Under the pieces are notes generated by a model that did no database searches, was not told the origin of the DNA, and worked only from the letters and a program-made list of their open reading frames with translations. Both the position numbers and the translations under genes were made by a program. A stretch of DNA of 64,000 bases, from the NCBI RefSeq assembly GCF_020149765.1, contig NZ_CP083809.1:3844001-3908000 (forward strand), given 5' to 3'. How positions within the stretch are numbered: position 1 is the first letter of the stretch; every line of letters begins with the position of its first letter. Positions 23,985 through 64,000 of this stretch are shown here, piece by piece. This DNA is from Pantoea agglomerans. GTDB lineage: Bacteria > Pseudomonadota > Gammaproteobacteria > Enterobacterales > Enterobacteriaceae.

Positions 23985-24678
23985 GACCTTTCCTGTAGAA
24001 CCAGTAAGCGGTGCTTTCCAGCCGGGCACCGCTGCGTAAATAGAGTCGCATCGCCGACAGGTTGCTGAGCTGCGTCGCGACGCGCAGACGGCCGAGCTGG
24101 CGCACCCGTCCCCAGTCCGCGCCTGCCAGCAGCAGCCGCTGCCCGACGCCCTTGCCCTGCGCATGCGGCAGCACGCCCAGCAGCCCGACCCGCACTTCGC
24201 CTTCCGTCTCGCGCAGCGAGATAAAGCCGAGCGGCGCACCCGCCTCGTCGCTGGCGATCAGACACTGATGATCAAAGGTGCCGCGCACCGCGTTTTCAAT
24301 CCACTGGGCATAAAAGCGCGCGCTGGCGTCCGCGTCGAACCAGGGCGCGCGAAAGCGGCTGCGCACGAAGATCTGCGACGCCGCCGCGCGCAGCGCGTCG
24401 ATTTGCGCCTCGCGCGCGATGCGGATGCCGCTCTGCCGTTCGGTGCGCTTAATATTGATGGCCAGGTCCGCCTCCCCCTCCGCCAGCTGGAAGCCCCGCT
24501 GACAAAGGGCGTCAATCGCCTCAAGCCGGTCGGCGGGCACTTTGATCTGCCAGAGATCGGCTGGATGGCGCAGCGCCTCATCCAGCGGCCGATCGCCGTC
24601 CAGATCGAGCCGCGCCGTGGCACGGTTGAAAAAGGCGCTTTCCCACGCCAGTGGACTAATACTGACGCGGACGGGCAT
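23971..24678 (-). CDS. wecD: dTDP-fucosamine acetyltransferase WecD (RffC)
   Basis: A 235-residue GNAT-fold acetyltransferase that acetylates dTDP-4-amino-4,6-dideoxygalactose to TDP-Fuc4NAc. Conserved stretches are [34 protein letters not shown], the acetyl-CoA-binding motif [16 protein letters not shown] and [19 protein letters not shown]. It is eleven residues longer than the E. coli protein, mainly at the C-terminus (KGHDPI) where it overlaps wecE. Confidence 0.95.
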
Positions 24679-25537
24679 GTAAGAGATCCAGCAGATACTG
24701 GCCGTAGCCGGTTTTCGTTAAGGCTTCGCCGGCGGCGCGCAGTCGCTCGTCGCTCAGCCAGCCGTTACGCCAGGCGATCTCCTCCAGACAGGCGACTTTG
24801 AAACCCTGACGCTTCTCCACCGTCTGGACAAAGGTACTGGCCTCAATCAGGCTGTCGTGCGTGCCGGTATCGAGCCAGGCGAACCCTCGGCCTAACAGCT
24901 CAACAGAAAGCTGACCGCGCGCCAGATACATTTGGTTGATGGCGGTAATTTCCAGCTCGCCGCGCGCAGAAGGCTTCACCTGCTTTGCAAACTCGACGAC
25001 CTGATTATCGTAAAAATAGAGGCCGGTTACCGCCCAGCGCGATTTCGGCGCGCTGGGTTTCTCTTCGATAGAGATCGCGTTGAAGGCGTCGTCAAACTCC
25101 ACGACGCCAAACCGTTCGGGATCCATCACCTGATAGCCAAACACCGTCGCGCCTTGCTCGCGTGCGGCGACTTTCTTCAGCTTAGGACTAAAGCCCTGGC
25201 CGAAATAGAGGTTGTCGCCCAGCACCAGGCAGCAGCTATCGCCGTCGATAAAACGCTCGCCGATAATAAACGCCTGCGCCAGACCGTCCGGGCTTGGCTG
25301 CACCGCATAGCTGATATGGATACCGAACTCACTGCCGTCGCCCAGCAGGCGCACAAAATGATCGCGATCGTCCGGCGTGGTGATAAGCAGAATATCGCGG
25401 ATGCCTGCCAGCATCAGCACTGACAGCGGATAGTAGATCATCGGCTTGTCGTACACGGGCAGCAGCTGCTTAGAAATGGCTCGCGTAATGGGATGCAGAC
25501 GCGTGCCGGAACCGCCTGCCAGAATAATACCTTTCAT
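24656..25537 (-). CDS. rffH: Glucose-1-phosphate thymidylyltransferase RffH
   Basis: A 293-residue nucleotidyltransferase (E. coli length) making dTDP-glucose from glucose-1-phosphate and dTTP. The signature is [18 protein letters not shown], with [28 protein letters not shown] and [10 protein letters not shown]. The start at 25537 is chosen over a longer frame reaching into rffG because it gives the nucleotide-binding N-terminus. First step toward TDP-Fuc4NAc. A paralogue (rmlA) often exists in O-antigen clusters, but the ECA context fixes this one as rffH. Confidence 0.96.
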
Positions 25538-25559
25538 CGCTTCCGCTCCTCCGACGCCT

Positions 25560-26639
25560 TCATGAACGCGACGCAGCCAGGCCCAGCCGCTCGCCGCGAT
25601 AACGCCCGTCCAGAATAGACTGCCACCATGCCTGATTTTCCAGATACCAGCGCACGGTTTTACGCATTCCGCTGTCAAATGTCTCTTCGGGCGTCCAGCC
25701 CAGCTCGCGCGCAATTTTACTGGCGTCGATAGCATAACGCTGATCGTGCCCGGGGCGATCCGCCACGAAAGTAATCAAATCGCGGTAGTGCGCCAGGCCA
25801 GCGGCTTTACGCTCTGGCGCCAGTTGCTCCAGCAAATCGCAGATGGTGTGCACCACGTCAATATTGCGCTGCTCATTATGGCCGCCGATATTGTAGGTTT
25901 CGCCCACCTTGCCGCTGCTTACCACGCGATAGAGCGCGCGCGCATGATCCTCAACATAGAGCCAGTCGCGGATCTGCTCGCCGTTGCCGTAAACAGGCAG
26001 CGGCTTGCCCGCCAGCGCATTGATGATGGTGAGCGGGATCAGCTTTTCCGGGAAATGGCAGGGGCCATAATTGTTCGAGCAGTTGGTGACGATAACCGGC
26101 AGGCCATAGGTACGCAGCCAGGCGCGCACCAGATGATCGCTGCTGGCTTTGGTCGCTGAATAAGGACTGCTCGGCGCATAGGGAGTGGTTTCGGTAAAAA
26201 ACGCCGCTGGGTCCTGCAAATCGCCAAACACTTCGTCGGTGGAGATATGGTGGAAGATAAAGCTCTCGCGCCGCGCCGGCTCAAGTCCACTCCAGTAGCT
26301 ACGCGCCGCCTCCAGCAGCTGATAGGTGCCGACAATATTGGTTTCGACGAAGGCGATGGGGCCGTCAATAGAGCGGTCAACGTGGCTTTCCGCCGCCAGA
26401 TGCATAACGCAGTCGGGCTGATAGCGCGCGAAAACGGCGTCCAGCGCCGGGCGATCGCATATATCCACCTGCTCGAAAGCGAAGCGCGCGTCCTGCATAA
26501 CGCTCGCCAGCGAGGCGAGATTGCCCGCATAGCTGAGCTTGTCGACCACAACGATGCGGTGATCCGTCTCTTCGATAAGAAAACGCACCAGCGCCGAGCC
26601 GATAAAACCTGCGCCGCCGGTGATTAAGAACTGTTTCAC
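25560..26639 (-). CDS. rffG: dTDP-glucose 4,6-dehydratase RffG
   Basis: A 359-residue extended short-chain dehydrogenase/reductase. The NAD-binding motif is [14 protein letters not shown] at the N-terminus. [11 protein letters not shown] carries the catalytic Thr-Asp-Glu and YSATKASSD the Tyr-x3-Lys pair. It makes dTDP-4-keto-6-deoxyglucose, which WecE then aminates. Its start overlaps the wecC stop by four bases; rffH starts 22 bp after its end. Confidence 0.97.
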
Positions 26640-38773: not shown

Positions 38774-40834
38774 TCACTTTTTGCTTTTCATCTGCTGCAG
38801 CACAGTGCTGCACTGGTTATCCTCATTGTCGCTTGGACTGATCAACGCCAGCAGCGCGGCGGCAGGACCGACCACGGTGCCGAGCGCGACGGCAGCGGCA
38901 CCGCGCGCCAGCAGCGGCCCGGCCTTAACCCCGGCGTCAGGATTTTTAAAGGTGCCGCGCACGTAAAGCGGCGAACGCAGCGTTACGATGCGGATGCCTT
39001 TACTCTCGGGGTTAATCGACAGATCCAGCCGCTCGCTGGCGAAGTTGGCGTTGCCAGTAACGTTGATCACCGCATTTTCGGTATCAAACACAAACAGGTT
39101 CGGCGTCGCCACGCCGTTTTGCAGCTTCACATCGGTCGCGGCGCAGTTGATGCGCACCTCATCGTCGCCGAACAGCTTGCCAACCACGTAGTTGCCGACG
39201 TTCAGCCCGGCGATCTCCATCAGGCTGCGGCTGATTAAGCCGTTATTCATCAGCAGCTTCAGCTGGCCATTGCTGGTCGCCAGCAAATCCGCCACCGAAT
39301 TGCCGCTGCCGGTAAAGCTGGCGTCGCCGTTTAGCTGGCCCAGGCTACGCTGCATCGCTTCGACGTTTGGGAAGAGCTGACGCAGGTGCAGGCGACGCGC
39401 GTGGATATCGGCGCGGCCGCGCATCGGCGATTTATCCCCTTCCAGACGAATGGTGCTGTTCAGCGTGCCGCCCGCCATGCCGAAGCGCAGCGGATCGAGC
39501 AGCAGATCGCCATTTTTTAGCTGCAGATGGGTATAGAGATCGCTTAACGGCAGCGAACTGCCATGTTCGATGCGCTTGCCGGTGAACTTCACGTCGGCGT
39601 CCATTACGTCCCAGCTTTTGGTATCAAAGGTGTCGTGCGGCAGTACCCGATCGGCAGGCTGCGTCGACTTTTCACCGCGCTTCGTCTTCGCCTGCTCGGT
39701 TTTAGCGCTGCCTTTGCCGGAATCGACGCCGATCAGCGGCCCCAGGTCCGCCATACGCAGCTGTTTCGAACTCAGCTCGCCCACCAGCGCCGGACGCGGT
39801 TTGCCCTGAGTGTAGGTGAGCGTGCCGTGAATATCGCTGTCGCCGATATGGCCGTTGAAGTTTTCGTAGTGGTATTCCGGCCCGTTTTTGCCGGCGAAGC
39901 GGGCGGTCAGATGGCCGTCGGTTTCATAGGGCGGCGTATCGGGCAAGAGCACGCCGGTCAGACCGTAGAGATTGGCCAGCGTATCGCCGGAGAAGCGCAG
40001 CCGCACGTTCACGCCGCCGAGATTCATCGGATCCTGAATGCCGCCCGTGACCTGCACGCGCGTCGAGCCGTTGCGGATATCGGCCTGAATCGGGAACGGC
40101 GTATTTTTGCTGCGCAGCGAGAGCATGCCGCCGGTTTTGCCTTCCCCCTCCAGCTGCTCGTTGTTATAGGTGCCGCGCGCTTGCCAGCCAAAAACAAAGT
40201 CGCCCGCGCCTTTCTGCGCGTCGCTGCCGCCGGCAATCTGCCCATAAGGCACCGGCTTGCCGAGCGGATTGATTTTAACCGTCACGTCGGCTTTATTGAC
40301 CGCATCGCGGTAGCGCAGCTGCCCCTGATCGAACAGGATATTGTCGAGGCGGAATGACCAGGCGGACGGCGTCGCGTTAGCGTCAGGGTTGTCGCTCCCG
40401 GCGAGATTAAAGGTCCAGTTGTTCTTTTTGTCGGCGGTCTGAATCAGCCGCGCATCGGGCTGCTGGAGTTTGATCCACGGGAGGTAAATTTCTTTATGCA
40501 GCAGTGCCAGCGGCGCGAGGGTGGCGTCGACGCGCTCCAGATGCACCATCGTGATCTCCGCCATCTCGGGCGGATTGCCTAATATGATGTCCTGCGCGTG
40601 CACGTGCGGCCAGGGTATCCAGCTTCGCCAGCCCGGCTACTCGCGGTTGCGCTCCCAGACAACGCCGAGATCGCCGCGAATCGCAAACTGACGATTCAGC
40701 TCCGTCGAAACTTTCTGGTTGATGGTGGGCTTGAGACGATTCCAGTCAAAGGTCGCGATGATGATCACCACCACCACAATCAGCAACAAAAAAATCCCGA
40801 CTATCCAGCTAACAACTTTTCCCGTGCGCGACAT
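38774..40834 (-). pseudogene. yhjG: AsmA family protein YhjG, interrupted by an in-frame amber codon
   Basis: An AsmA-like protein of 686 residues if read through. Codons 1-65 encode a membrane anchor (VVSWIVGIFLLLIVVVVIIIATF) and the conserved block DWNRLKPTINQKV, ending VWERNRE. Codon 66 is TAG (40637-40639). The same frame then continues PGWRSWIPWPHV and the full AsmA domain to the C-terminus (LQQMKSKK). At this site the E. coli protein has Gln-like codons, so a single C-to-T change of CAG is the simplest explanation. The start at 40834 follows GGAGGAAG. YhjG resembles AsmA-like proteins of the envelope; its exact role is unknown. Without readthrough or a GTG restart near 40603 the gene is probably dead; a sequencing error is possible. 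Confidence 0.88.
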
Positions 40835-40897
40835 CTCGCTTCCTCCTTGCCTCTCCACAGTCTCCGTTAAAGATAGTCGAGACGAGGTGGAACGGCA

Positions 40898-49509: not shown

Positions 49510-52500
49510 TTATTTGAAATCGGCGTAAGGCGTAAGCGGCTGCGGCGGCATATCGAGATCGCCATCCCAGCCGGCGGCGGAGTAGCGCACATAGAGCAGC
49601 CCGTGGCTCGGGGTATAGTCCTTCGCCTGCTGAATATCCACCCCAGCGCCGATAAACCAGTGCGGCGTGACGCGTCGCTCGATGACGGCCTGTAAAGTAT
49701 AGCCGACACCGCCCCCGCTGCTGCTCGCCGAAGAGGGATTGCTCGCCAGCGTAAAGCCGGGATTAACCGGATAGCGCTGCTGCGCGTCGGTTTTCGAATG
49801 CGACCAGGAGACCGAGCCGCCGAGGTCAAACGACCAGTTCCCGGTGCGCTGCCGCCAGGTGACCGGCACGGAAAAGGAGAGATAGGATTGCGGGCTGTAG
49901 TACCCCCCCTGGCCGAAGGTATAGTCGCTGAGATCCTTCTGGTAATGCCAGAGCATGGTGTTAAGACCCACCGTGGCGCGGCGGTTATCGCTATTGATCA
50001 GCTTGTAGTAATAGCCCGCCATCAGGCGTTCGCGGCTGTTGTCCGCCACGTTCTCGCCGGTGATCTGATGGGCGCTGATATCGGCCCAGACGCCGTGTGC
50101 GCCGCCGCGATCGTAGCTCAGCCCAACGCTGCCGCCGGTCGCCACCACCCCGCCCCAGGTTTTGCCGCCGTTGGCCGCCGGATCGCGCGCGCCCGCATAG
50201 GCGAGCAGCGAGCTGGAGATGGGGCGTCTTGAGGCGGTAAGCGTTACGCCCACCTCTTTCACGTCGGTTTTCCAGCTGACGCCGCCGACCCAGTTGGTTA
50301 CCTCGAAGCCGAGCGGCGTCGTGCCGAGATCCGCTGACCAGACCTCATTGCTCCAGCCGACGCCCAGCGCGGTGCCTTCGTCGCGCTGGCTGGCGTAGCG
50401 GCTGCAGCCGCCTGAGTTGGCGTCGTCGCAGCTGCCGAAGGTCTCGTCAAAGGTGCCGTTGGTGCTAGAGAAGGTGCCCGCCGAGATCTGAACGCGATCG
50501 AGCCGCAGGAAGCCGCGGCCGTCAGCAAGGGGCGTCTCCGCCTGCAGCATGGTGGTATGGGCGCTAAAATCGGAGACGCCGGCGGTGCCCTTGTTGCGCG
50601 AATAGTCCTGCTCCAGCATCAGCGTGGTGTCCTGCTGGCGATAGAGATCGGCGGTGTCGCTGCGGATGCTGCGCTTCAGCCAGTCATCCTGCGGGTTATT
50701 GCGCGTCAGGCGGCTGACATTATCGCCGTCGCCGATGCCGCTGGCGGCCATCGCCTGCCGATAGTCGGCCAGCGCGGCGTCAGGCTGCTGCTGCGCGCGC
50801 TCAAGCCGCGCCGCATCGCGGTAGACCAGTGCTTTGTCCTGCGAGGGTGGCTGCGCCGCGGCGCGCTGCTTCAGGCCCGCGAACTGCGCGGCGGCCTGGG
50901 TGGTGTCGCCCACCGCCTGCCACGCCAGCGCCACGCGGCGATCGGCGTTCAGGCTCGCCTGCGCGGGCGGCAGCGCCTTCAGCGCCGCGCGCGCCTCGCT
51001 GCTGCGCTGCAGCGCCACCAGCGCTTCGATACGCCCGAGCGAGGCATCGCCGTTGGCAGGCTCCCGCTCAAGCACCTGCTGATACATCGCCAGCGCCTGC
51101 TGCGCGTCGCCGCGCGCCAGCGCCCAGTCGGCCAGCGTCAGATCGCGGCGGTTCGAGGCGGGCTGCTGACGCAGCAGTGCGATGGCGTCGCTCTCCTGCC
51201 CTGCCGCGCGCAGCGCCTCAGCGCGCGCAAACAGCTTATTCTGCGTCAGGCGTTCCGCCAGCTCGCGCATATTGCTGCTCCACTGCGCTTCCGGCAGGCG
51301 GCGCAGCGTCGCCAGCGCCGCCTCGTCATTATCGGTGCCGGAGAGATAGAGCGCCGACGCATAAAGCGCGGTCGCATCCCGCGGATGCTGCTGCTGCAGC
51401 GTCGCGATCACAGCATCCGCCTGCTGCGGCGCCCCGCCGTTGCGCAGCGCGCCAGCCAGCCGGTAGCTGAGCCAGACGTCATCCGGCGATAAGGCCTGCG
51501 CCTGGCGATATTTCTCCGCCGCCGCTTGCCAGCGGCTCTGCTGTGCCAGCGCGTCAGCCTCGGCGCGCAGGCTGTCGCTGCGCAGGGCGCGCAGCGTGTC
51601 GGCCAGCGCGCGCTGCTGCGCGGCGGGCAGACCGTTAATAAAGGCCATCGCGCGCGCCGGCGACTGGGTCTGATAGAGCCCCGCCAGGCGACGAACCGCG
51701 GTGGTGTTGCTGGCGTCGAGCTGCAGCGCACGCTGGAAGAGCTGTTCGGCGCCCGGCGCGTTATTGCGCGCCAGCGCCACATCGCCAAGGCCAATCAGGG
51801 CGTAGCTGTCGCTGCTATCCAGCGTCTGCGCCTCGCGATAGAAGCGTTCTGCGCCGTCGATATCGCGCTGCGCCAGCGCTTTGTCACCCTGGTCGATCGC
51901 CAGCCAGTAGCGGTTGGTCTGCAGCAGCGACTGCCACTTGCCCACCTGGGTGCTCTGCTGACCGGCCTGAATCGCGCGCTCCAGCCAGAGAACGGCGGCG
52001 GCGCGGTTGTTGGCGCGCGCCTGCGCCTGGCCCATGGCGCCCATCAGGTCTGCGTCGTTGGGGTTCGCCTTCAGGGCGACGTTCAGCGCCGGGATAGCCT
52101 CGGCTCCGCCGCCCGCGTCCACCAGCCCCAGGCCGCGCATACGCTCGCGATAGGCGGGATCGGCGAGCAGCGCCTGCTGCTTCGCCAGCGCCTCCTGCCC
52201 CTGTTGCTGCGCGTCGCCGTCGGTAAAGATGGTCAGATAGGTTTTCAGCTGCGCCACGCTGCTGTCGCTCACCGGCTGGCTGTTGATCTGCTGCAGCCAG
52301 AGATCTGCCGCGGCGTCGCGACCGGCACTGCTCTTCGCCAGCTGCTTTATCTGCTCGACCGCCTGGGTCGGCTGCTGGCGATCGAACGCCATGCGCGCGA
52401 GCTGCAGCTCGACGCCGATATTGCCGGGATAGCGCTGCTCCAGCTTTTGCAGCTGCTGCCAGGCAGCCTCCTCCTGGCCGGGAATGCGCGCCGCCAGCCG

Positions 52501-52992
52501 CCAGTATTCCAGTGCGGTGTTCGCATCGGGGAAGACGCCGTTAAACAGCGCGTCATAGGCGCTTTTCGCCTCCGCAAGACGGCCGGAGGTGGCGAGCAGG
52601 CGCGCCTGCTGCAGCTTCTGCCGACCCTCAGAGGAGACCAGCGCCATGCCAACGGCCGACTCGCGCGTTGCCGCCGAATCGGGTGCCACCTTTTTCAGCT
52701 GCGTCAGCAGCGTCTGCGCGGCAGCGATATCGCCCTGATGCAGCGCCAGACGCAGACGCGCCGCCAGCACCTGCGGATTATCGGGATCGATCTTCTCCAG
52801 CCGGTAGAGCGCCTGCTGCACCAGATCGTATTTACTGGTCGATTCGCCGGTGCGGACCTGCGTCAGCAGCCACTCCACCGGCGAGACTTCCGGTCTGGCG
52901 TCGGGCGCGGCCAGACCCGGCAGCGCGCCCAGCACGCCGCTCAGCAACAGACTCGCCCGCAGCGCGCTCGATTTATTCATCTTCATCGTCAA
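49510..52992 (-). CDS. bcsC: Cellulose synthase outer membrane protein BcsC
   Basis: An 1160-residue protein (E. coli 1157). A signal peptide ends near LPGLAA, a long TPR superhelix fills most of the periplasmic part, and the last approximately 330 residues form a 16-strand beta-barrel ending YVRYSAAGWDGDLDMPPQPLTPYADFK. It carries cellulose across the periplasm and outer membrane. Several start codons are close together (52992, 52986, 52980); the first overlaps the bcsB stop by 20 bp. In E. coli bcsZ lies between bcsB and bcsC, and here nothing does. The 91-bp gap to pdeK holds no clear terminator. Confidence 0.97.
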   Translation of the reverse strand: MTMKMNKSSALRASLLLSGVLGALPGLAAPDARPEVSPVEWLLTQVRTGESTSKYDLVQQALYRLEKIDPDNPQVLAARLRLALHQGDIAAAQTLLTQLKKVAPDSAATRESAVGMALVSSEGRQKLQQARLLATSGRLAEAKSAYDALFNGVFPDANTALEYWRLAARIPGQEEAAWQQLQKLEQRYPGNIGVELQLARMAFDRQQPTQAVEQIKQLAKSSAGRDAAADLWLQQINSQPVSDSSVAQLKTYLTIFTDGDAQQQGQEALAKQQALLADPAYRERMRGLGLVDAGGGAEAIPALNVALKANPNDADLMGAMGQAQARANNRAAAVLWLERAIQAGQQSTQVGKWQSLLQTNRYWLAIDQGDKALAQRDIDGAERFYREAQTLDSSDSYALIGLGDVALARNNAPGAEQLFQRALQLDASNTTAVRRLAGLYQTQSPARAMAFINGLPAAQQRALADTLRALRSDSLRAEADALAQQSRWQAAAEKYRQAQALSPDDVWLSYRLAGALRNGGAPQQADAVIATLQQQHPRDATALYASALYLSGTDNDEAALATLRRLPEAQWSSNMRELAERLTQNKLFARAEALRAAGQESDAIALLRQQPASNRRDLTLADWALARGDAQQALAMYQQVLEREPANGDASLGRIEALVALQRSSEARAALKALPPAQASLNADRRVALAWQAVGDTTQAAAQFAGLKQRAAAQPPSQDKALVYRDAARLERAQQQPDAALADYRQAMAASGIGDGDNVSRLTRNNPQDDWLKRSIRSDTADLYRQQDTTLMLEQDYSRNKGTAGVSDFSAHTTMLQAETPLADGRGFLRLDRVQISAGTFSSTNGTFDETFGSCDDANSGGCSRYASQRDEGTALGVGWSNEVWSADLGTTPLGFEVTNWVGGVSWKTDVKEVGVTLTASRRPISSSLLAYAGARDPAANGGKTWGGVVATGGSVGLSYDRGGAHGVWADISAHQITGENVADNSRERLMAGYYYKLINSDNRRATVGLNTMLWHYQKDLSDYTFGQGGYYSPQSYLSFSVPVTWRQRTGNWSFDLGGSVSWSHSKTDAQQRYPVNPGFTLASNPSSASSSGGGVGYTLQAVIERRVTPHWFIGAGVDIQQAKDYTPSHGLLYVRYSAAGWDGDLDMPPQPLTPYADFK

Positions 52993-55264
52993 GCAGACGG
53001 CGGCGCGTAATGATGCGCATCAGGCGCCAGGTCATCAGCGCAAACAGCACCACGACAAAGACCGCACAGAGCGCCAGCCAGAACGGATGGGTCGACAGCA
53101 TCGTCCACAGGCGCTCCCACCAGGGGAGATGGCCGACGAAATAGTTGTCGCCGACGCGCAGGCTGTTAACGCCCGACTCGCGGATAATGGCGGCAGAGCC
53201 GAAAATCGCGGCGCGCTTGCCGCTGTCGGTCAGCGCGTCGTTCAGCAGCTGCCAGGCGCGCGGGCTGCCGTCCGACAGCAGCGCCACCACGCTGCGCTGA
53301 TCGTTAAACGGCGACTGGAAGCCGATCACCGTCGCCAGCGGGCCGCGAGAGCCGATGGTGGTGGTGCTTTCTACCGCGCGATCGCCGTCGCTGACGCTGC
53401 CGACATCGGTGGCCGCCTGACGCGTCGGCGAATTTATCCAGCTGGCGGCGGCGTCGACCAGCGCACCGATCCGGCGGTCATCCTGAAGATCTTTCGGGAT
53501 ATCGCCGATCATCAGCAGATCGGCGTCCTGCGACTTCGCCTTGCTCCAGTCATCGCTAAACTGCACCCGCAGCGCCGGATAGCCGGTCTGCGCGCCAATA
53601 TTGCCCAGCGCATTCAGCATCGTGCCGACCTGCTGCGCGTCAGGTTTCGGCTGCACCAGCACCAGCGTTTGCGCCAGATCGGCGTAGCGCGTAAAGGGGA
53701 AACCCGCGCCCGCGAACGCGCGCAGCGAAGGCATCTCGATATAGTGACGGTAGCCGGAGAAATCGACGCTGGAGCTGTCGTCCACCACCACGTGATGGCT
53801 GACCGGCGTAACGTTCTCACAGCGTCCGTCGGCGGTGCCGCTGATAATGGTGTTGGCGTAGTCGAAGTCGAAACGCAGCTGGTTTACCACGCCGAGGCGC
53901 AGCGCCGGGATGGTCAGCTGGCGGTTGTTGTCCTGCAGCCCCTGGATCAGCGGAATGCGCAGCAGCTGCTGGCCGGCGGTATTTTTCGGCGGCAGCGGAT
54001 AATCCTGGATGAACTGGTTGTTCAGGTGTACCGCCAGGCGCGAACCGTCCGCCTGGAACGGCGCGGTATAGCGATAGCTCAGATCCATATCGATGCCGCG
54101 CGCGCGCACCAGGAAGAGATCGGGCGGCAGATTGAGCGTCAGGCCGATGGGATTGGGCTGCATACCGTCGGACTGCAGCTGGTTCTCATACTGCGTCAGC
54201 TCGGCAAAGGTGGTGCGACGGTCGGTTCGCACCCAGTTCGGCGCGTCATAGGCTTTGCGCGGCGCCAGCAGTTTTACGCTGTCGATGGTTGAGATGTCGC
54301 CGCGCAGCAGCAGCTCGCCCTGGGCGATGCCCTGCACCGCCGTGAGCAGATCCTCATCGTTGCGCCCCAGAATCAGCAGCATTTTTTCATAGGGATTGTC
54401 GGGCTGGCTGACGATTTCCACCGTGGGCTTGCTCACCGGCGGCAGATCTTTCAAAAAGTCCGGGCGGGCGTCGTTGGTGGCGAACACCACGGCGTGCTGC
54501 TGCTGCGGCAGCTGGTTGTAGAGCACCGGAAAGTGCTGGCCACGCCACGCGGCTTTGCTGCCGAACCAGGAGGCGAGTATCCCGGCGGCGCGCTGCTGCG
54601 TTACGTCCGGCTGCGCGGCGAAAACAACCGGCAGCGTCAGCGGCCGCTTGTCGCGCGCGTCGAAAAAGGGCTCAGGAAAGTGCGACAGATCGTTTTTCAG
54701 CGGCAGCTTTTGCAGCGTCAAATCGATACCGCTCTCTTTGCCGATATCGAACCAGATGGTGCTGCTGGCCGGATTTTCACAGATGTTGGTGTAGTGGCCC
54801 ACCAGCTCAAAGCGCACGCGGTTGAAGTCGCTGATAAAGCGGGGATCGATCGCCAGCTGGGTCTGGTTCTCTTTGCCGAGCTGGTCCGGCGTAACGGTAA
54901 TCAGGCCGATCAGCTCGTCGTTAAGATAGACCTTGAGCTGCGACAGCGTCGGCAGCAGCGCGGGCGAGGGACGATAGCTGAGATTCAGCAGCGCGCGCGT
55001 GACCACCTCGTCGCTGCGCACGCCGAACTCAATCTGTCCGTCCGGCTGCGTGCCGCTCAGCGTCATGCTGCCCGGCGGCGGTGCCAGACTGGTAAAGTCG
55101 AGCCGGCTGTCGCGCAGCGGCGCGCCGGAATCCTGCGGCGCGACCTGTACTGGCGCCGGCTCGGCGGGATTCGCCGTTACGGCGTCCTGCGCGGCGGCGC
55201 AGCTTAGCGTTGCGGAGCCCAGCAGCAGGGCGGTAAACCAACCGTTTACTCTCGTCATCGTCAT
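52973..55264 (-). CDS. bcsB: Cellulose synthase periplasmic subunit BcsB
   Basis: A 763-residue periplasmic protein (E. coli 779) with a signal peptide (TALLLGSATLSCAAA), alternating carbohydrate-binding and flavodoxin-like domains, and a C-terminal membrane helix (FWLALCAVFVVVLFALMTWRLM) that docks on BcsA. Conserved parts include the N-terminal jelly-roll start (FTSLAPPPGSMTLSGTQPDGQIEFGVRSDEVVTRA), DVTQQRAAGILASWFG and HLPWWERLWTMLSTHPFW. It guides the emerging glucan. bcsA ends 4 bp upstream. Confidence 0.97.
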   Translation of the reverse strand: MTMTRVNGWFTALLLGSATLSCAAAQDAVTANPAEPAPVQVAPQDSGAPLRDSRLDFTSLAPPPGSMTLSGTQPDGQIEFGVRSDEVVTRALLNLSYRPSPALLPTLSQLKVYLNDELIGLITVTPDQLGKENQTQLAIDPRFISDFNRVRFELVGHYTNICENPASSTIWFDIGKESGIDLTLQKLPLKNDLSHFPEPFFDARDKRPLTLPVVFAAQPDVTQQRAAGILASWFGSKAAWRGQHFPVLYNQLPQQQHAVVFATNDARPDFLKDLPPVSKPTVEIVSQPDNPYEKMLLILGRNDEDLLTAVQGIAQGELLLRGDISTIDSVKLLAPRKAYDAPNWVRTDRRTTFAELTQYENQLQSDGMQPNPIGLTLNLPPDLFLVRARGIDMDLSYRYTAPFQADGSRLAVHLNNQFIQDYPLPPKNTAGQQLLRIPLIQGLQDNNRQLTIPALRLGVVNQLRFDFDYANTIISGTADGRCENVTPVSHHVVVDDSSSVDFSGYRHYIEMPSLRAFAGAGFPFTRYADLAQTLVLVQPKPDAQQVGTMLNALGNIGAQTGYPALRVQFSDDWSKAKSQDADLLMIGDIPKDLQDDRRIGALVDAAASWINSPTRQAATDVGSVSDGDRAVESTTTIGSRGPLATVIGFQSPFNDQRSVVALLSDGSPRAWQLLNDALTDSGKRAAIFGSAAIIRESGVNSLRVGDNYFVGHLPWWERLWTMLSTHPFWLALCAVFVVVLFALMTWRLMRIITRRRLLDDEDE

Positions 55265-55268
55265 ATCA

Positions 55269-57891
55269 TCAACTCAATACGTTTTTTGAAGCGGACGTCC
55301 GTCCGATGCCCTGCGGCAACAGCGAGGCCAGCCAGCTCACCCCAGCGGTAAGCAGGTTAAACAACCGACGTAACTGCGGCGGACCATATTCCGCCAGGCG
55401 CAGATAGCCCTTAAAGCCGAGGATCATAATATCGGCGAGGCTCTGCACCGGTTTATCTTCCGGGAAACCGTCCTGCCACAGCGCCCAGGTATCGGCGCGG
55501 GCGAAGGTACACTGGATAAATTCGATATGCTGCTGGGTGGTCAGCTGATGCAGACGAATACCGGCGCGCAGGCCGAAGACGCGCTGCACGCGGCAGGGAA
55601 AGCTGAACTCCTGCTGACCGCGGCGCAGCAGCAGCCAGACTTTTTCATCTTCCTTCAGCGCATTCGCCTCGCGCAGCTCGACGCCCACGCCGCCGTCGGA
55701 GTAGTCGCGCAGCGTGCAGGGCAGCATATGGCCATCTTCGCGCGCGATAGCGGCGGGCATGGCGATCTCCACGCGGTGCGCCTCGCGGATTTGCCGCGCT
55801 TCGACGGAAACCGCCACCGCGCCACCGAGGATCACCATGTTGTAGATCACCCACACCAGGCTCACCCAGACCGTCAGCACCTCATTGGCCGGACCGTAGT
55901 TCATGCGCCAGAACGCCATCCCCACGCCCGCCAGGTTGAGCAGCACCAGGAACATATAGGGTTTGGTGATCACCCAGTCGAGATGGTGCTCCTCGACCAG
56001 ACCGCCTTTCGCCGTCACGTTGAATTTACCTTTGTGCGGGTTGAACAGGGCGACAGTGGTCGGCCGGGCGATATACCAGGCCAGCACGGTTTCATACACC
56101 TCGCTCCAGAAAGAGTGACGCCAGCGCCCCTGAATGCGCGAGTTGGTCAGGCTGGTGTGCAGCATATGCGGCAGCACGTAGATAGCGATGGCGAGCGCGG
56201 GCGCGTAGATGATGTAGGCGTGACAGAGCAGAAACGCCAGCGGCGCCAGCAGGAAGATCAGGCGCGGAATGCCGGAGAGAAAGTGCAGCATGGCGTTGGC
56301 GTAGCAGAGGCGCTGCACCCACTTCAGTCCTTTACCGAACAGCGGGTTATCGAGGCGGAAAATCTGCACCATGCCGCGCGCCCAGCGAATACGCTGGCCG
56401 ATATGCGCCGACAGGCTCTCGGTCGCCAGCCCCGCCGCCTGGGGGATGCGGATATAGGCCGAGGCGTAGCCGAGTCGGTGCAGGCGCAGCGAGGTATGCG
56501 CATCTTCAGTCACGGTTTCTACCGCAATGCCGCCGATCTCATCCAGCGCGCTGCGGCGCAGCACGGCGCAGCACGGCGCAGGAGCCGCAAAAGAAGGTGG
56601 CATCCCAGGTATCGTTGCCGTCCTGCACCAGGCCGTAAAACAGCGAGCCTTCGTTTGGCGTGCGGCGGAAGCGGCCCAGGTTGCGCTCAAAGGGATCGGG
56701 CGAGAAGAAGTGATGCGGCGTCTGCAGCATCGCCAGCTTCGGATCCTTGATAAACCAGCCGATGGTCATCTGCAGAAAGGCGCGCGTCGGCACGTGGTCG
56801 CAGTCGAAAATCGAGACAAACTCGCTGCGGCAGCGCGTTTTCAGCGCGTGGTTGATATTGCCCGCCTTGGCGTGCTCGTGGGTCGGACGCACCACATAGT
56901 TCACGCCGACGCTGGCGGCGAATTCGCGAAACTCCTCGCGGCTACCGTCGTCGAGCAGATAGATATTTAGCCGATCTTTCGGCCAGTCGATGCCCATCGC
57001 CGCGTAAATCGTCGGCTTAACCACGCTGAGCGGCTCGTTATAGGTCGGCACCAGCAGGTCGACGCTCGGCCACTGGTCGAGGGTGGTGGGCATCGAGACC
57101 GGCTGACGGTTAAGCGGCCACAGGGTCTGAAAATAGCCCAGCACCAGCACTACCCAGGCGTAGGTTTCCGCGACGATCAGCAGCAGGCCAAACACCAGGC
57201 TAAGCGGATCGTCCCAGTTCAGCGTCGATGTGTAGCGCCACCACAGATAGCGGCAGGAGACGGTCAGCGACAGCACGATCAGCATCATGGTCGGGAAGCG
57301 GCCCGGCACGCGCCGCACCAGCATCGCCAGGCTCCAGAGCAGCACCACGAAGATAAACTGCGTCAGCAGCCCGAACGGCTGGCTGATGCAGAGCAGCGCC
57401 AGCAGCGAAGCGAACAGCGCCACGCCGATAAAACCGAGGCGACGCGCCAGCGGCGAGAGCCGCTGGAGCCGCTGTTCAAGACGCGCGTCAACGTTGCCGT
57501 TCTGCACGCGGGCGGTCAGGCTGTCGAGCCACTGATAGCTGCGCTGACGCCAGCGGAACAGCGACTGAAAGCCCTTAAAGCGCTGGCGCTCGCTGCGGCC
57601 GCTCTCATCCTGCGGCAGGATAACGATCAGCCACAGCGTCTGGACCAGATAGCGCAGAATATCTAACGGGCGCGGGCGCTCCGGCGAGATATGCGGATAG
57701 AGACGACGGCGATCCTGAATAATGCGCTGCCAGCCCGGCGTCTCAAAACGCAGCAGCGCCCAGCCCAGCGCGCACCAGAACACATTCAGGCCGCTGGCGA
57801 AGCGGGACGCGCCGTGGTCACGCCCCATCGCGTAGCGCAAATGCAGCGCCTGCCAGACCGGCGCGGTCAGCAGCCAGCGCAGCGGGTTCAC
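55269..57891 (-). pseudogene. bcsA: Cellulose synthase catalytic subunit BcsA, frameshifted by a 10-bp tandem duplication
   Basis: The GT2 processive glycosyltransferase that makes beta-1,4-glucan from UDP-glucose. The first part (57891 to 56539, 450 codons) has the membrane helices, the DDGS motif and the DCDH motif, and reads FFCGSCAVLRR before leaving frame at AAPQRAG and stop. The rest (about 56560 to 55269) is intact in another frame: VTEDAHTS, QRIRWARGM (Q-x-x-R-W), and a PilZ domain with REAHR (R-x-x-x-R) and DYSDGGVG that binds c-di-GMP. A perfect 10-bp repeat at 56561-56580 explains the shift; removing one unit restores 870 residues (E. coli 872). As read, neither part is active alone. 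The start overlaps the bcsQ stop. Confidence 0.92.
56561..56580. repeat. 10-bp tandem duplication inside bcsA
   Basis: Two perfect head-to-tail copies of GCACGGCGCA, with seven matching bases of a partial third copy before them (56554-56560). The extra ten bases shift the reading frame by one. Single-unit bcsA sequence is restored by deleting either copy. Confidence 0.93.
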
Positions 57892-59013: not shown

Positions 59014-60552
59014 ATGAAAAATTCCTTTGCGCTGGGGCTGTTACAGGTTCAGCCTGAATTAACGGTATTGCAAACGCCCGGCTGTTATTGGGTAACCTGC
59101 GCGCGTCAGGAAGATGCACGCGCTTTTATCCGTCAGGCGATTCTGGCGCAGCAATCCGTCACCCTTATCAGCGCAGATGAAAAGCCGCGCGATCTTCTGA
59201 CGCCGGACCCTGCGGGCGGGCCCGATCGTATCCCGCTGTTTTCATTGCCTAAAAACAAAAGCAGCCTGCTGCGTCTGGAGAGCGATTTTTCCCGTAAGCT
59301 CGGCAGTAAAAACGGGCTGGTGATTTTTAACAGCAGCGCGGCGCAGTGGGATAAACTCGACGACGCAGAGTTAACCTCGTGGATAAAGCGCATGCGGCGG
59401 GTGCTGATTAAAAAGCAGATGACGCTTTTAATGGTTACCTCCGGCGCAACAATAATTAACCTGCGCAATAATCTTCAGCGTTATTTTCGCCAGCTTGATG
59501 GCCTGGCTCATTTAGCTTTTCAACAGGATAGCTGGCAATATCGAATTAACTGGTGGTACACCACCGATCGGCTGCTCGCCGACCGCGCCATTCGTCTTGA
59601 CTGCAAAGACGATCGCTTTTATGCCGTCAATGAAAATGAAAAGCAGGAGCCGCTCAGCTTAAACGACGAGCAACATTATCTTGCCGATAAAATAGTGCTG
59701 GAGGGTGCGCCGCCGCTTTCGCGTCAGTGGCAGCTGTTTGATGATAACGAACAGGTCTTTTTCCGCGCCCAGCAGGCGAGCGCCGCAACGGTGATTTTCA
59801 GCCTGACCCGCAGCGACCTGATCGGCGAGCTGGCGAAAATGGTGCACAGCCTGCGCCGCGCGCGCGGCAACGGTTTAAAAATCGTGGTGCGCGAAATGGG
59901 CACCAGCCTGCGCTACAGCGACGAACGTCTGCTGCTGGCGTGCGGCGTTAGCGCCATCGTCTCCGCCAGCGCCACCATGTCGCGTTTCCTGACCACGCTG
60001 GAGGGCCTGCAGGGCCAGGTCTTCAACCGCCGCGTGCCCGCTAACCTGGATGCGCTGACCGCCGCGCTGCAGCCGCTGCAGGAGAAAGGCTATTTGCGCC
60101 TCGACGCCTTCTGTCAGGCGGTGGGACAGCTGATCGGCAACACCCTGCTGCCGGACAATGACAAAGGTCTGCTGGTGGCGCTGCGCCCGGTGCCACAGCT
60201 GCGACCGCAGCAGATTCTGACGCTGTGCAAGCCGCGTCGCTTCGGCGATCTGGTAACGGTGCTGGACGATCGCGTCATCCTGTTTCTCTCTTCCTGCCGC
60301 TATAACGATCTCGATACGGCGCTGAAATTTATCTTTTCGCTGCCGCACGACGAGATTTTTGCTAACCGGATGGTCTGGTTTGAGGACAATCAAATTCTCG
60401 CTGAAATCAATAATATCAAGAACCTGACGCCAAATGCGCTGCAGGATATCGCGCCGCAGACTCAGCCCGCGCAGATTGCAGAGGAACCGGTTGAAACGCG
60501 CGAACGCAGCGCGCCGCAGCCGATTACATTACTGCCGGAGATGAAAAGCTGA
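59014..60552 (+). CDS. bcsE: c-di-GMP-binding cellulose regulator BcsE
   Basis: A 512-residue protein (E. coli 523). The N-terminal half is an ATPase-like, non-catalytic receiver region (GCYWVTCARQEDARAFIRQAI). The C-terminal half is the GIL domain that binds c-di-GMP (RARGNGLKIVVREMGTSLRYSDERLLLACGVSAIVS, with the RxGD-type segment near PRRFGDLVTVLDDRVILFLSSCRYNDLDTAL). BcsE enhances cellulose production and recruits BcsF and BcsG. The stop overlaps the bcsF start. Confidence 0.95.
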   Translation: MKNSFALGLLQVQPELTVLQTPGCYWVTCARQEDARAFIRQAILAQQSVTLISADEKPRDLLTPDPAGGPDRIPLFSLPKNKSSLLRLESDFSRKLGSKNGLVIFNSSAAQWDKLDDAELTSWIKRMRRVLIKKQMTLLMVTSGATIINLRNNLQRYFRQLDGLAHLAFQQDSWQYRINWWYTTDRLLADRAIRLDCKDDRFYAVNENEKQEPLSLNDEQHYLADKIVLEGAPPLSRQWQLFDDNEQVFFRAQQASAATVIFSLTRSDLIGELAKMVHSLRRARGNGLKIVVREMGTSLRYSDERLLLACGVSAIVSASATMSRFLTTLEGLQGQVFNRRVPANLDALTAALQPLQEKGYLRLDAFCQAVGQLIGNTLLPDNDKGLLVALRPVPQLRPQQILTLCKPRRFGDLVTVLDDRVILFLSSCRYNDLDTALKFIFSLPHDEIFANRMVWFEDNQILAEINNIKNLTPNALQDIAPQTQPAQIAEEPVETRERSAPQPITLLPEMKS

Positions 60553-60740
60553 TGAACCTGATGGACTGGGTGCAGATTGCGCTGCTGGCCTTAGTTATTT
60601 TACTGTTTTTAAAGCCGTTATATCGGCAATGGCTGCCGAGCCGCTGGAACGGCATATTGAATCGCCTGCTGCCCGCGCGTGCGCTAAAGTCTGAAGGTCA
60701 CTGGCAGCGTAAGTCCTCGAAAAAGGATGCAAATCATTAA
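60552..60740 (+). CDS. bcsF: Cellulose biosynthesis membrane protein BcsF
   Basis: A 62-residue single-span inner membrane protein: helix MDWVQIALLALVILLFLKPL near the N-terminus, then a basic cytoplasmic tail ending RKSSKKDANH. In E. coli BcsF links BcsE to BcsG in the membrane. The sequence is not strongly conserved; length, topology and start/stop overlaps with bcsE and bcsG support the call. Confidence 0.92.
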   Translation: MNLMDWVQIALLALVILLFLKPLYRQWLPSRWNGILNRLLPARALKSEGHWQRKSSKKDANH

Positions 60741-62407
60741 TGAATAACGATCAACCCACTTCTGCCCACTCTTCTCGCCTGTGGTCTTACTGGCGCGGAC
60801 TGGGCGGCTGGAACTTCTACTTTCTGCTCAAGTTCGGCCTGCTGTGGTACGGCTATCTCAATTTCCACGCCCTGAGCAATCTGGTGTTCCTGGCCTGGCT
60901 GCTGTTCCCGCTGCCCTCCCCGCGTCTGCACCGCCTGCGCAGCTGGATTTCAATTCCCATCGGCTTCGGTCTGTTCTGGCATGACACCTGGCTGCCGGGA
61001 CTGGAGAGCATTCTCAGTCAGGGCAACCAGGTAGCGGGTTTCTCCGGCGCTTATCTGCTCGATCTGGTTAACCGCTTTATCAACTGGCAGATGGTCGGCG
61101 CCGCCTTTGCGCTGCTGGTGCTCTATCTGTTTGTGTCGCAGTGGATCCGCGTGACGGTGCTGGTTTCGCTGATGCTGATCTGGCTTAACGTGCTGACCAT
61201 CGCCGGTCCTGCGCTGTCGCTGCTGCCGACTAAATCCGCTACGCCGGAGGTGGTGCTGAATCAGACGCCCGCGGCCGGACAGAGCCCGGCGGCCAGCGCG
61301 CCGGACGGTCTCGATCAGTCGGCGCCGCCCACCAGCGCCAACCTGACCGCCTGGCTGAACCGTTTTTACGACAGCGAACGCAAGCGCGTGACCCGTTTTC
61401 CCGACAGCCTGCCTGCGGATTCGCAGCCCTTCGATATTCTGGTGGTGAATATCTGTTCGCTCGCCTGGTCGGATATCGACGTCTCGCAGCTGCGCAGCCA
61501 TCCGCTGTGGCAGCACTTCGATATCGTGCTGAACAACTACAACTCCGCTACCGGCTACAGCGGTCCGGCGGGGATCCGTCTGCTGCGCGCCAGCTGCGGC
61601 CAGACGTCGCACAGCGATCTCTATAAGCCGACCGATGCGCGCTGCTATCTGTTTGATAACCTGGCGAAGCTGGGTTTCAAAGAGCAGCTGATGATGGACC
61701 ACACCGGCGTGTTTGGTAACTATCTCAAAGAGCTGCGCAACGACGGCAATCTTCAGGCGCCGCTGATGTCGCAGGCAGGCATCGCGTCGGAGCTGACCTC
61801 GTTCGACGGCTCGCCGGTATATAAAGATGCGCAGCTGATGCAGCGCTGGCTGGATGACCGCAGCAAGAGCAGCGACGCGCGCAGCGCCACCTTCTATAAC
61901 CTGATCCCGCTGCATGACGGCACGCGCGATCTCGGCAGCACCAAAACCGCGCCGTGGAAGCCGCGCGCGCAGCTGCTGTTCGACCAGCTCGACGCCTTCC
62001 TCACCAACCTGGAGAAGTCGGGTCGACGCGTGATGGTGCTGGTGGTGCCGGAGCACGGCGCGGCGCTGCAGGGGGACAAGATGCAGATGTCCGGCCTGCG
62101 CGATATTCCGAGTCCGAGCATTACCCATGTGCCGGTGGGCATTAAGTTTGTTGGCATGAAAGCGCCGCATCAGGGTCAGCCGCTGACTATTGATACGCCG
62201 ACCAGCCTGCTGGCGATTTCCGAGCTGGTTTCCCGCGTGGTGGATGGACAGGTGTTTAACGCGCCGAATGTGAATATGTCGGTGCTGGCGGATAAGCTGC
62301 CGCAGACGCCGGTAGTGTCGGAGAATGATAATGCCGTGGTGGTGATGTATCAGGGCAAGCCCTGGATCCGGCTGAACGGCGGCGACTGGGTCGCCTATCC
62401 GCAGTAG
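60740..62407 (+). CDS. bcsG: Cellulose phosphoethanolamine transferase BcsG
   Basis: A 555-residue enzyme (E. coli 559). The first about 165 residues hold several membrane helices, followed by a Pro/Ala-rich linker and a periplasmic alkaline-phosphatase-fold domain. Active-site residues are visible: Cys in VVNICSL (about 239), the nucleophile Ser in NNYNSATGYSGPA (about 269) and the metal ligands Glu-His in VVPEHGAALQG. It moves phosphoethanolamine from phosphatidylethanolamine to cellulose glucose units. Last gene of bcsEFG. Confidence 0.97.
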   Translation: MNNDQPTSAHSSRLWSYWRGLGGWNFYFLLKFGLLWYGYLNFHALSNLVFLAWLLFPLPSPRLHRLRSWISIPIGFGLFWHDTWLPGLESILSQGNQVAGFSGAYLLDLVNRFINWQMVGAAFALLVLYLFVSQWIRVTVLVSLMLIWLNVLTIAGPALSLLPTKSATPEVVLNQTPAAGQSPAASAPDGLDQSAPPTSANLTAWLNRFYDSERKRVTRFPDSLPADSQPFDILVVNICSLAWSDIDVSQLRSHPLWQHFDIVLNNYNSATGYSGPAGIRLLRASCGQTSHSDLYKPTDARCYLFDNLAKLGFKEQLMMDHTGVFGNYLKELRNDGNLQAPLMSQAGIASELTSFDGSPVYKDAQLMQRWLDDRSKSSDARSATFYNLIPLHDGTRDLGSTKTAPWKPRAQLLFDQLDAFLTNLEKSGRRVMVLVVPEHGAALQGDKMQMSGLRDIPSPSITHVPVGIKFVGMKAPHQGQPLTIDTPTSLLAISELVSRVVDGQVFNAPNVNMSVLADKLPQTPVVSENDNAVVVMYQGKPWIRLNGGDWVAYPQ

Positions 62408-62743: not shown

Positions 62744-62988
62744 TTTTTATTAACGGCTGCGTTGTCTGTATGCAGGGTTCGCCCTTACAGCGATAAGGTT
62801 GCGGTTTTTATTAACGACGGTGTCGTCTGAATACATGATTCACGCTTACAGCGATAAGGTTGCGGTTGTTATTAACGGCTGTGTCGTCTGAATACATGCT
62901 TCACGCTTGCAGCGATAGGGTTGCGGTTTTATTAACGACTATGTCGTCTGTATGCAAGGTTCACGCTTTCAGCGATAAGGTCGCGCCT
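62744..62988. repeat. 61-bp tandem repeat, four copies
   Basis: Four head-to-tail copies with spacing 61, 61 and 60 bp, marked by ATTAACG at 62749, 62810, 62871 and 62931. Each reads TTATTAACGRC.., then GTCGTCTG, a TATGC/CATG stretch, TTCACGCTT and CAGCGATAAGG. Copies differ at several bases. They sit between the arms of the inverted repeat. Confidence 0.92.
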
Positions 62989-63255: not shown

Positions 63256-63590
63256 GGCGAACGAAACCTGCTCAGAGCCGCCTGCGCAGCGGCCAACCCG
63301 CAGCCGAACGAAACCCGCTCAGAGCCCCCTGCGCAGCAGCCACCCCGCCAGCCGAACGAAACCCGCTCAGAGCCGCCTGCGCAGCAGCCACCCCGCCAGC
63401 CGAACGAAACCCGCTCAGAGCCGCCTGCGCAGCAGCCAACCCGCCAGCCGAACGAAACCCGCTCAGAGCCCCCTGCGCAGCAGCCACCCCGCCAGCCGAA
63501 CGAAACCCGCTCAGAGCCCCCTGCGCAGCAGCCACCCCGCCAGCCGAACAAAACCCGCTCAGAATCCGCCTGCGCAGCAGCCACCCCCCG
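63256..63590. repeat. 48-bp tandem repeat, seven copies
   Basis: GCCGAACGAAACCCGCTCAG marks copies starting at 63303, 63351, 63399, 63447, 63495 and 63543, exactly 48 bp apart. A more divergent first copy begins near 63256 and is one base shorter. Copies differ mainly at one G/C position in AGCC(G/C)CCTGCG. As 48 is a multiple of three, long open frames run through it on both strands, but none shows features of a real protein. Confidence 0.95.
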
Positions 63591-63641: not shown

Positions 63642-64000
63642 TCAGCGCTTCTCCTGAAGCGCCTGCCACACCAGCAACTGCAAACTGGCGGAGAAATAGT
63701 TCTGATCCGGCGCCAGCCGGTCGCTGATATAGCCGGTCTCATTCAGCGTCAAATCGCGGATCGCCAGCAGGCCGCCGTCGAGATTGTAAGGCGCGTTGCT
63801 GTTGCCCAGCACGTCGAACCAGGCCGGCGTCGTCAGGCGGCCGTAGCGCTGCCAGACGTTCTGAAACGGCACCAGACGCAGGCTCTGCGGGTCGTACCAC
63901 CAGATATAAAGCGGTATGCGCACCGCGTCATAGCTAAAGCGGTTCGAGTAGCCCACCGCCGGCGCCACCGAGCCATCGGCATTCAGCGCCACCCAGTCGA
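63642..64000 (-). CDS. Glycoside hydrolase family 8 (cellulase / BcsZ-like), C-terminal part
   Basis: The last 118 codons of a GH8 endoglucanase; the gene continues beyond the window. The family segment FSYDAVRIPLYIWWYDP is clear, followed by VPFQNVWQRYGRLTTPAWFDVLGN and the C-terminal helices to QALQEKR. In most bcs loci a GH8 enzyme (BcsZ) trims cellulose in the periplasm and sits between bcsB and bcsC. Here that slot is empty and a GH8 gene lies beyond bcsG on the opposite strand to it. The sequence looks closer to the CelC/CelY-type GH8 enzymes than to E. coli BcsZ as I recall it, so it may be a functional replacement or part of another cellulose cluster. Confidence 0.85.
   Translation of the reverse strand, partial: DWVALNADGSVAPAVGYSNRFSYDAVRIPLYIWWYDPQSLRLVPFQNVWQRYGRLTTPAWFDVLGNSNAPYNLDGGLLAIRDLTLNETGYISDRLAPDQNYFSASLQLLVWQALQEKR

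What the first reader, a model, noticed from the sequence alone, without database searches (positions are those of the whole stretch)
56554..56590. bcsA is switched out of frame by a perfect 10-bp tandem duplication
Seen directly: two perfect copies of GCACGGCGCA plus seven bases of a partial third. The upstream frame ends 450 codons in, just after FFCGSCAVLRR; the downstream frame resumes with SALDEIGG and all remaining catalytic (TED, QxxRW) and PilZ motifs intact. Deleting one unit restores an 870-residue BcsA. Short tandem repeats can gain or lose units by slippage, so this could be a reversible OFF state of cellulose synthesis, a recent loss-of-function mutation, or an assembly error. All other bcs genes here look intact, which argues for a recent or reversible event.
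Basis: partly seen in the sequence, partly recalled or inferred. Interest (0 to 1): 0.85.

Follow-up and report, generated by a model that had tools for sequence, protein, structure and literature searches.

The report
Slippage-broken cellulose synthase gene
One of the two cellulose synthase genes of this Pantoea bacterium is interrupted by a 10-base unit present once more than in any relative compared, likely an ordinary recent loss of function rather than a built-in on/off switch.

Summary
At 56554-56581 (2.8 perfect 10-bp units) the bcsA frame breaks after FFCGSCAVLRR, leaving open frames of 450 and 473 aa. It is the window's only array with two full perfect copies (periods 5-39), and 109 of 109 compared bcsA loci lack the extra 10 bp. 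The host is a Pantoea near P. septica and P. piersonii. Both gene halves still look constrained and show no second lesion, so the break looks recent. Calling it a cellulose OFF switch is not supported: at the site, relatives repeat at a 10-base distance over at most 9 bases; a second complete operon (bcsQABCDZ) lies next door; bcsA-I is absent or interrupted in other Pantoea, and truncated alleles are listed for sister species. In shaken Komagataeibacter cultures a 20-bp duplication frameshifted bcsA (PMC13068021, passages). Most likely this is a recent slippage loss-of-function allele, perhaps revertible, without evidence of switching. Assembly error cannot be excluded without reads; no sister-strain allele could be seen.

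The parts
56554..56581 (-). Perfect tandem array, unit 10 bp, 2.8 copies; the frame break in bcsA-I
   Evidence: absent as two full copies from 109 relatives
56539..57891 (-). bcsA-I, upstream open frame (450 aa, GTG start): membrane part and first half of the GT2 domain with DDG and DCD
   Evidence: PF00535
55269..56690 (-). bcsA-I, downstream frame (473 aa as an ORF; BcsA-like from about the array on): TED, QRIRW, PilZ
   Evidence: PF13632, PF03552, PF07238
57888..58619 (-). bcsQ (243 aa), open
52973..55264 (-). bcsB (763 aa), open
49510..52992 (-). bcsC (1160 aa), open
59014..60552 (+). bcsE-like (512 aa), open
   Evidence: name from position and recall
60552..60740 (+). bcsF-like (62 aa), open
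   Evidence: name from position and recall
60740..62407 (+). bcsG-like (555 aa), open
   Evidence: name from position and recall
63642..64000 (-). 3' part of bcsZ, last gene of the second bcs operon (bcsQ2-A2-B2-C2-D-Z), which continues beyond the window

Best explanation
The bcsA gene of the first of two cellulose operons is interrupted by one 10-base unit more than any of 109 compared loci carry, and this is most likely a recent slipped-strand duplication that would inactivate BcsA-I. Shown: the array, the split frame, its absence from the relatives, and a second bcs operon with open frames next door. Inferred: the ancestral site (codons of SCAVLRR) held a short direct repeat 10 bases apart, as P. 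piersonii still has (CTGCGCCG twice), and mispairing there during replication added one unit. The break parts the DDG/DCD half of the glycosyltransferase domain from the TED/QxxRW/PilZ half, so neither product should polymerise glucose, and bcsB-bcsC downstream may suffer polarity. The predicted effect is loss of the cellulose made by the operon that carries bcsE-F-G, while cellulose from the bcsD-bearing second operon could remain. The allele may simply be tolerated, or may have been favoured by shaken laboratory growth or by phages that need cellulose. A later change of unit number is possible in principle, but nothing here points to an evolved switch.
For: Array and frames. Net 10-bp gain against 109 of 109 loci. 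Period-10 run 18 here, 2-9 in relatives, 9 of 109 with the full CTGCGCCG pair. Recent: no residue of the C piece and three of the N piece unseen in relatives (intact relatives: 0, and 1-2); dN/dS 0.12 and 0.04 against P. septica, 0.08 and 0.03 against P. piersonii. Dispensable: second operon open; in 61 genus genomes 46 have bcsA-I, 3 of these interrupted in mid-gene including this one, 13 have only another match, 2 none; truncated P. septica-like and P. piersonii-like alleles in the protein database. Background: one further broken gene in the window. Precedent: duplications and slippage in bcs genes of agitated Komagataeibacter (PMC13068021, passages).
Against: No reads seen, so an assembly error is not excluded. 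No allele of another strain of the species was seen; database clusters at 90% identity hide such members. Conserved halves would also fit a frequently reverting allele. dN/dS of the C piece is about twice that of the intact P. septica-P. piersonii pair (0.041 against 0.019), from few changes, which could hint at some relaxation; dctA, an intact gene, shows a similar difference (0.066 against 0.023). That slippage made the unit, and that BcsA-I is inactive, are inferred.
Confidence: 0.74

Rival explanations
1. Assembly or consensus error: the real genome carries the shorter array and BcsA-I is intact.
For: No reads available; all 109 relatives have the shorter form. Against the Nvir plasmid, 23 indels in 115 kb, many in homopolymers, so indel errors in one of the two assemblies are possible. 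The other broken gene in the window differs by an adjacent two-base change, which could also be a consensus fault.
Against: A perfect 10-bp duplication is not a homopolymer error. In the first 20 kb compared with Nvir there is one indel. Of 48 and 20 relative genes laid on the window only two prove broken. Large contigs, completeness 100, contamination 0.01.
Confidence: 0.15
2. Phase-variable switch: the array gains and loses a unit often enough to switch operon-I cellulose on and off.
For: Unit length is not a multiple of three, so a change of unit number changes the frame. Both halves remain conserved. Cellulose is needed by phages S6 and M7 of Erwinia amylovora (PMC9376448, passages), a possible reason to switch.
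Against: Only 2.8 units; no relative of 109 has two full copies; the second operon could keep cellulose on; other broken bcsA alleles in the group have breaks elsewhere, as expected of plain loss.
Confidence: 0.06
3. Programmed decoding: ribosomes or polymerase shift frame at the array and make full-length BcsA.
For: Only that both frames are well kept.
Against: The extra unit is in none of 109 relatives, so no recoding signal can have evolved around it; no slippery heptamer was noticed by eye (not scanned).
Confidence: 0.01

Closest known systems
Cellulose-negative mutants of Komagataeibacter intermedius in agitated culture (PMC13068021; passages seen)
   Same: A short duplication (20 bp) in bcsA shifts the frame and creates stops; slippage events in cellulose genes correlate with loss of cellulose
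   Different: There seen arising in the laboratory with population frequencies; here a single genome sequence, a different duplication (10 bp) and another genus with two enterobacterial-type operons
Simple-sequence contingency loci (phase variation by slippage; recalled, from no call)
   Same: Repeat unit not a multiple of three inside a reading frame
   Different: Such loci typically keep many units across strains; here 2.8 units in one genome and no relative of 109 with two full copies
Loss of biofilm in host-adapted Salmonella (PMC6611641; abstract seen)
   Same: Independent losses of a cellulose/curli-based biofilm in a lineage
   Different: Abstract names csgD promoter SNPs and a CsgD truncation, not a slip in bcsA
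bcsA-I of Candidatus Pantoea haifensis (L016/G005) and of the 2.9-Mb Pantoea genome G040
   Same: bcsA-I interrupted
   Different: Breaks at other places; G040 has several stops

Membership tests
BcsA, UDP-forming cellulose synthase (GT2 with PilZ) | GT2 domain with DDG, DCD, TED, QxxRW and a C-terminal PilZ domain in one protein | tested here: not met
   All motifs and domains are encoded but split over two frames; by descent it is bcsA
Recent loss-of-function allele by tandem duplication | Frame interrupted by a direct duplication | tested here: met
Recent loss-of-function allele by tandem duplication | Duplication absent from relatives (derived) | tested here: met
   109 of 109 loci net 10 bp shorter
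Recent loss-of-function allele by tandem duplication | Rest of the gene still constrained, no second lesion | tested here: met
Recent loss-of-function allele by tandem duplication | Duplication confirmed in reads | not testable with these tools
   no reads held
Phase-variable contingency locus | Unit length shifts the frame | tested here: met
   period 10
Phase-variable contingency locus | Multi-unit tract kept in related species | tested here: not met
   longest period-10 run at the site 2-9 bases in 109 relatives
Phase-variable contingency locus | Unit number varies among strains of the species | tested here: inconclusive
   no allele of another strain identified; Nvir chromosome not held
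Phase-variable contingency locus | Reversible phenotype at raised frequency | not testable with these tools
   needs culture

The most novel reading that the evidence does not exclude
A reversible slip site in the SCAVLRR codons of bcsA lets this Pantoea shut off only the cellulose of the bcsE-F-G operon while keeping that of the neighbouring bcsD operon, for example to escape phages that need cellulose.
Probability: 0.05. Interest if true: 0.6.

Novelty: new member of a known kind. Interest (0 to 1): 0.22.

Why it matters
It illustrates how one slip between codons of a conserved motif can silence one of two cellulose synthases, and it warns against reading a short out-of-frame repeat as a switch. 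If real, the strain is a natural case in which the contributions of the two cellulose operons could be told apart.

Tried and rejected
Second lesion in the downstream half: an R-to-L difference after TED looked like decay against P. piersonii, but L occurs in 21 of the aligned loci; rejected.

Heavy pseudogene load in the window: the scan flagged 11 of 48 matched P. piersonii genes and 3 of 20 matched P. septica genes. Of the 11, two lie at the ends of the compared stretch; three (corA, cyaA, an M16-peptidase-like gene) have the stop or shift upstream of the likely true start (the NCBIfam corA and cyaA models begin after it; for the M16-like gene judged from a signal-peptide-like start, recalled); four are divergent or probably spurious ORFs, not examined further; bcsA and an AsmA-like gene remain. 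The three P. septica flags are bcsA, the AsmA-like and the M16-like gene.

Sister-strain alleles: searches with the N piece, an intact P. septica BcsA and the C piece (best 120 of 4432, 7998 and 4003 hits listed) showed no hit of 99% or more to either piece; among the 238 proteins held after the best were 95.3% (N) and 98.4% (C). Clusters at 90% identity hide members, so this is inconclusive.

The 28-base array: 0 matches in viral contigs; among 128 loci only in stretches of this genome.

Hot-spot idea: some database BcsA from other genera also stop near this motif (e.g. P0029), with other tails; DNA not seen, not pursued.

Paper searches for close precedents: (and for the host); of these PMC13068021 is the only close one that I saw.

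Full report
What is there. On the minus strand bcsA begins at 57891 (GTG) and runs 450 codons to a stop at 56539; another frame carries the rest of the protein down to 55269. The frames meet at a perfect tandem array, 56554-56581, period 10, 2.8 copies. It is the only array in the window with two full perfect copies for periods 5 to 39; 30 first-order Markov sequences made from the window gave none with a run of 18 or more at periods 7-39 not divisible by three. The 18-base sequence of 1.8 units occurs in this genome only here, as two overlapping matches within the array.

Whose genome. The window lies on a 4.09-Mb contig of a 4.84-Mb, 5-contig genome. The N piece of its BcsA is 94%, 93% and 91% identical to P. 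septica, P. piersonii and Candidatus P. deserta. The first 20 kb of its 528-kb contig are 99.4% identical to a plasmid of Pantoea sp. Nvir, a symbiont of the stink bug Nezara viridula (PMC11585277, passages). Over 115 kb aligned with that plasmid, out of 220 kb of this contig and 124 kb of the record given to the script and with short or divergent pieces dropped, there are 903 mismatches and 23 indels. I take the two as one species (inference).

Derived state. 80 named loci (the best 80 of 572 relatives, themselves a capped list) and 29 unnamed genus loci (one search returned loci for 30 places, one of them this genome) were aligned at the site. All 109 are net 10 bp shorter. P. septica and P. 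piersonii appear in both sets, so this is 109 loci, not 109 species; this genome's own loci and its paralogue were left out. At the site the relatives match themselves at a distance of 10 over 2 to 9 bases, this genome over 18; 9 of 109 have the full CTGCGCCG pair that could template a slip. Hence a one-step gain in this lineage is the best reading (inference).

How old. Each half was compared apart. The C piece has no residue unseen in the relatives and the N piece three; three intact relatives treated the same way have 0 and 1-2. dN/dS of N and C is 0.12 and 0.04 against P. septica and 0.08 and 0.03 against P. piersonii; the intact pair P. septica-P. piersonii gives 0.095 and 0.019. The C value against P. 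septica is thus about twice that of the intact pair, on few changes; dctA, not broken, shows a similar difference (0.066 against 0.023). bcsB, bcsC and bcsQ lie at 0.11-0.15 against P. septica (all). This fits a recent break. It would also fit an allele that reverts often, so it does not by itself decide between loss and switch.

Background of broken genes. Genes of P. piersonii (48 matched) and P. septica (20 matched) were laid on the window and the adjoining 12 kb. Besides bcsA one likely real break was found, a TAG at 40637-40639 in an AsmA-like gene, by a two-base change against P. septica. In the held genus set of 61 genomes, 46 have a bcsA-I match at 80% identity or more. Three of the 46 are interrupted in mid-gene: this one, G005 (split near residue 628; its place fits L016, Ca. 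P. haifensis), and G040 (2.9 Mb, several stops). Two more (G043, G045) show a TAA within the matched span but open frames of 877 and 936 aa and were counted as open. 13 genomes have only another match (one, G055, ambiguous), 2 none. Of the 109 loci, 105 have one frame of at least 800 codons with all four motifs; the other four are L016 (636), L020 (781), L062 (790) and L093, the short G040 locus. The protein database also lists a truncated P. septica-like BcsA (621 aa) and two P. piersonii-like ones (586 and 453 aa), with breaks elsewhere; these may be real or sequencing errors. Losing bcsA-I is therefore not unheard of in this group.

What it would do. The N piece holds the first half of the GT2 domain, the C piece the TED, QRIRW and PilZ parts, so neither should be a working synthase (inference). 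But bcsA-I is not the only synthase gene: at contig positions 3907642-3918588 lies bcsQ2-A2-B2-C2-D-Z, all open, with BcsQ, GT2 and PilZ, BcsB, BcsC, BcsD and GH8 domains over cut-off. Cellulose need not be off. The part expected to be lost is the product of the operon with bcsE-F-G; that such operons make phosphoethanolamine cellulose in E. coli is recalled, not tested.

Switch or mutation. A contingency locus should keep its tract in relatives; here none of 109 has it, and two full units are few. Short duplications in bcsA are known to arise in culture: in agitated Komagataeibacter intermedius a 20-bp duplication frameshifted bcsA in the last two rounds of one flask, and frameshift and slippage events in cellulose genes correlated with loss of cellulose (PMC13068021, passages). 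Phages S6 and M7 of Erwinia amylovora rely on cellulose and its synthase (PMC9376448, passages), so phage pressure is a possible driver. Neither driver is shown here.

Verdict. Present in the sequence, derived, and likely recent. Most likely an ordinary slippage loss-of-function allele in one of two cellulose synthase genes; assembly error next; a dedicated switch unlikely. Reads and sister strains would settle it.

Noticed in passing
window 38774-40858 (-): An AsmA-like gene (694 aa in relatives) is cut by a TAG at 40637-40639, made by an adjacent two-base change against P. septica; the downstream part still looks constrained.
   Followed up: partly
window 62744-62985 and 63258-63587: Two larger tandem arrays between the bcsG-like gene and bcsZ: 61 bp x 4 and 48 bp x 6.9; exact pieces of their units were not found in the P. 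piersonii region.
   Followed up: partly
window 63642-64000 and onward (L119 7642-18588): A second complete bcs operon with bcsD and bcsZ directly follows the first; the P. piersonii genome gave only one bcsA match.
   Followed up: partly
P0001, P0002, P0003: Truncated BcsA-I of P. septica and P. piersonii type (621, 586, 453 aa) with breaks at other places than here.
   Followed up: partly
P0029: A 449-aa Yersinia intermedia BcsA entry also ends a few residues after the FFCGS motif, with a different out-of-frame tail; DNA not seen.
   Followed up: no
window about 24257-26639: This genome has some 2.4 kb between two genes that lie about 0.45 kb apart in P. piersonii.
   Followed up: no
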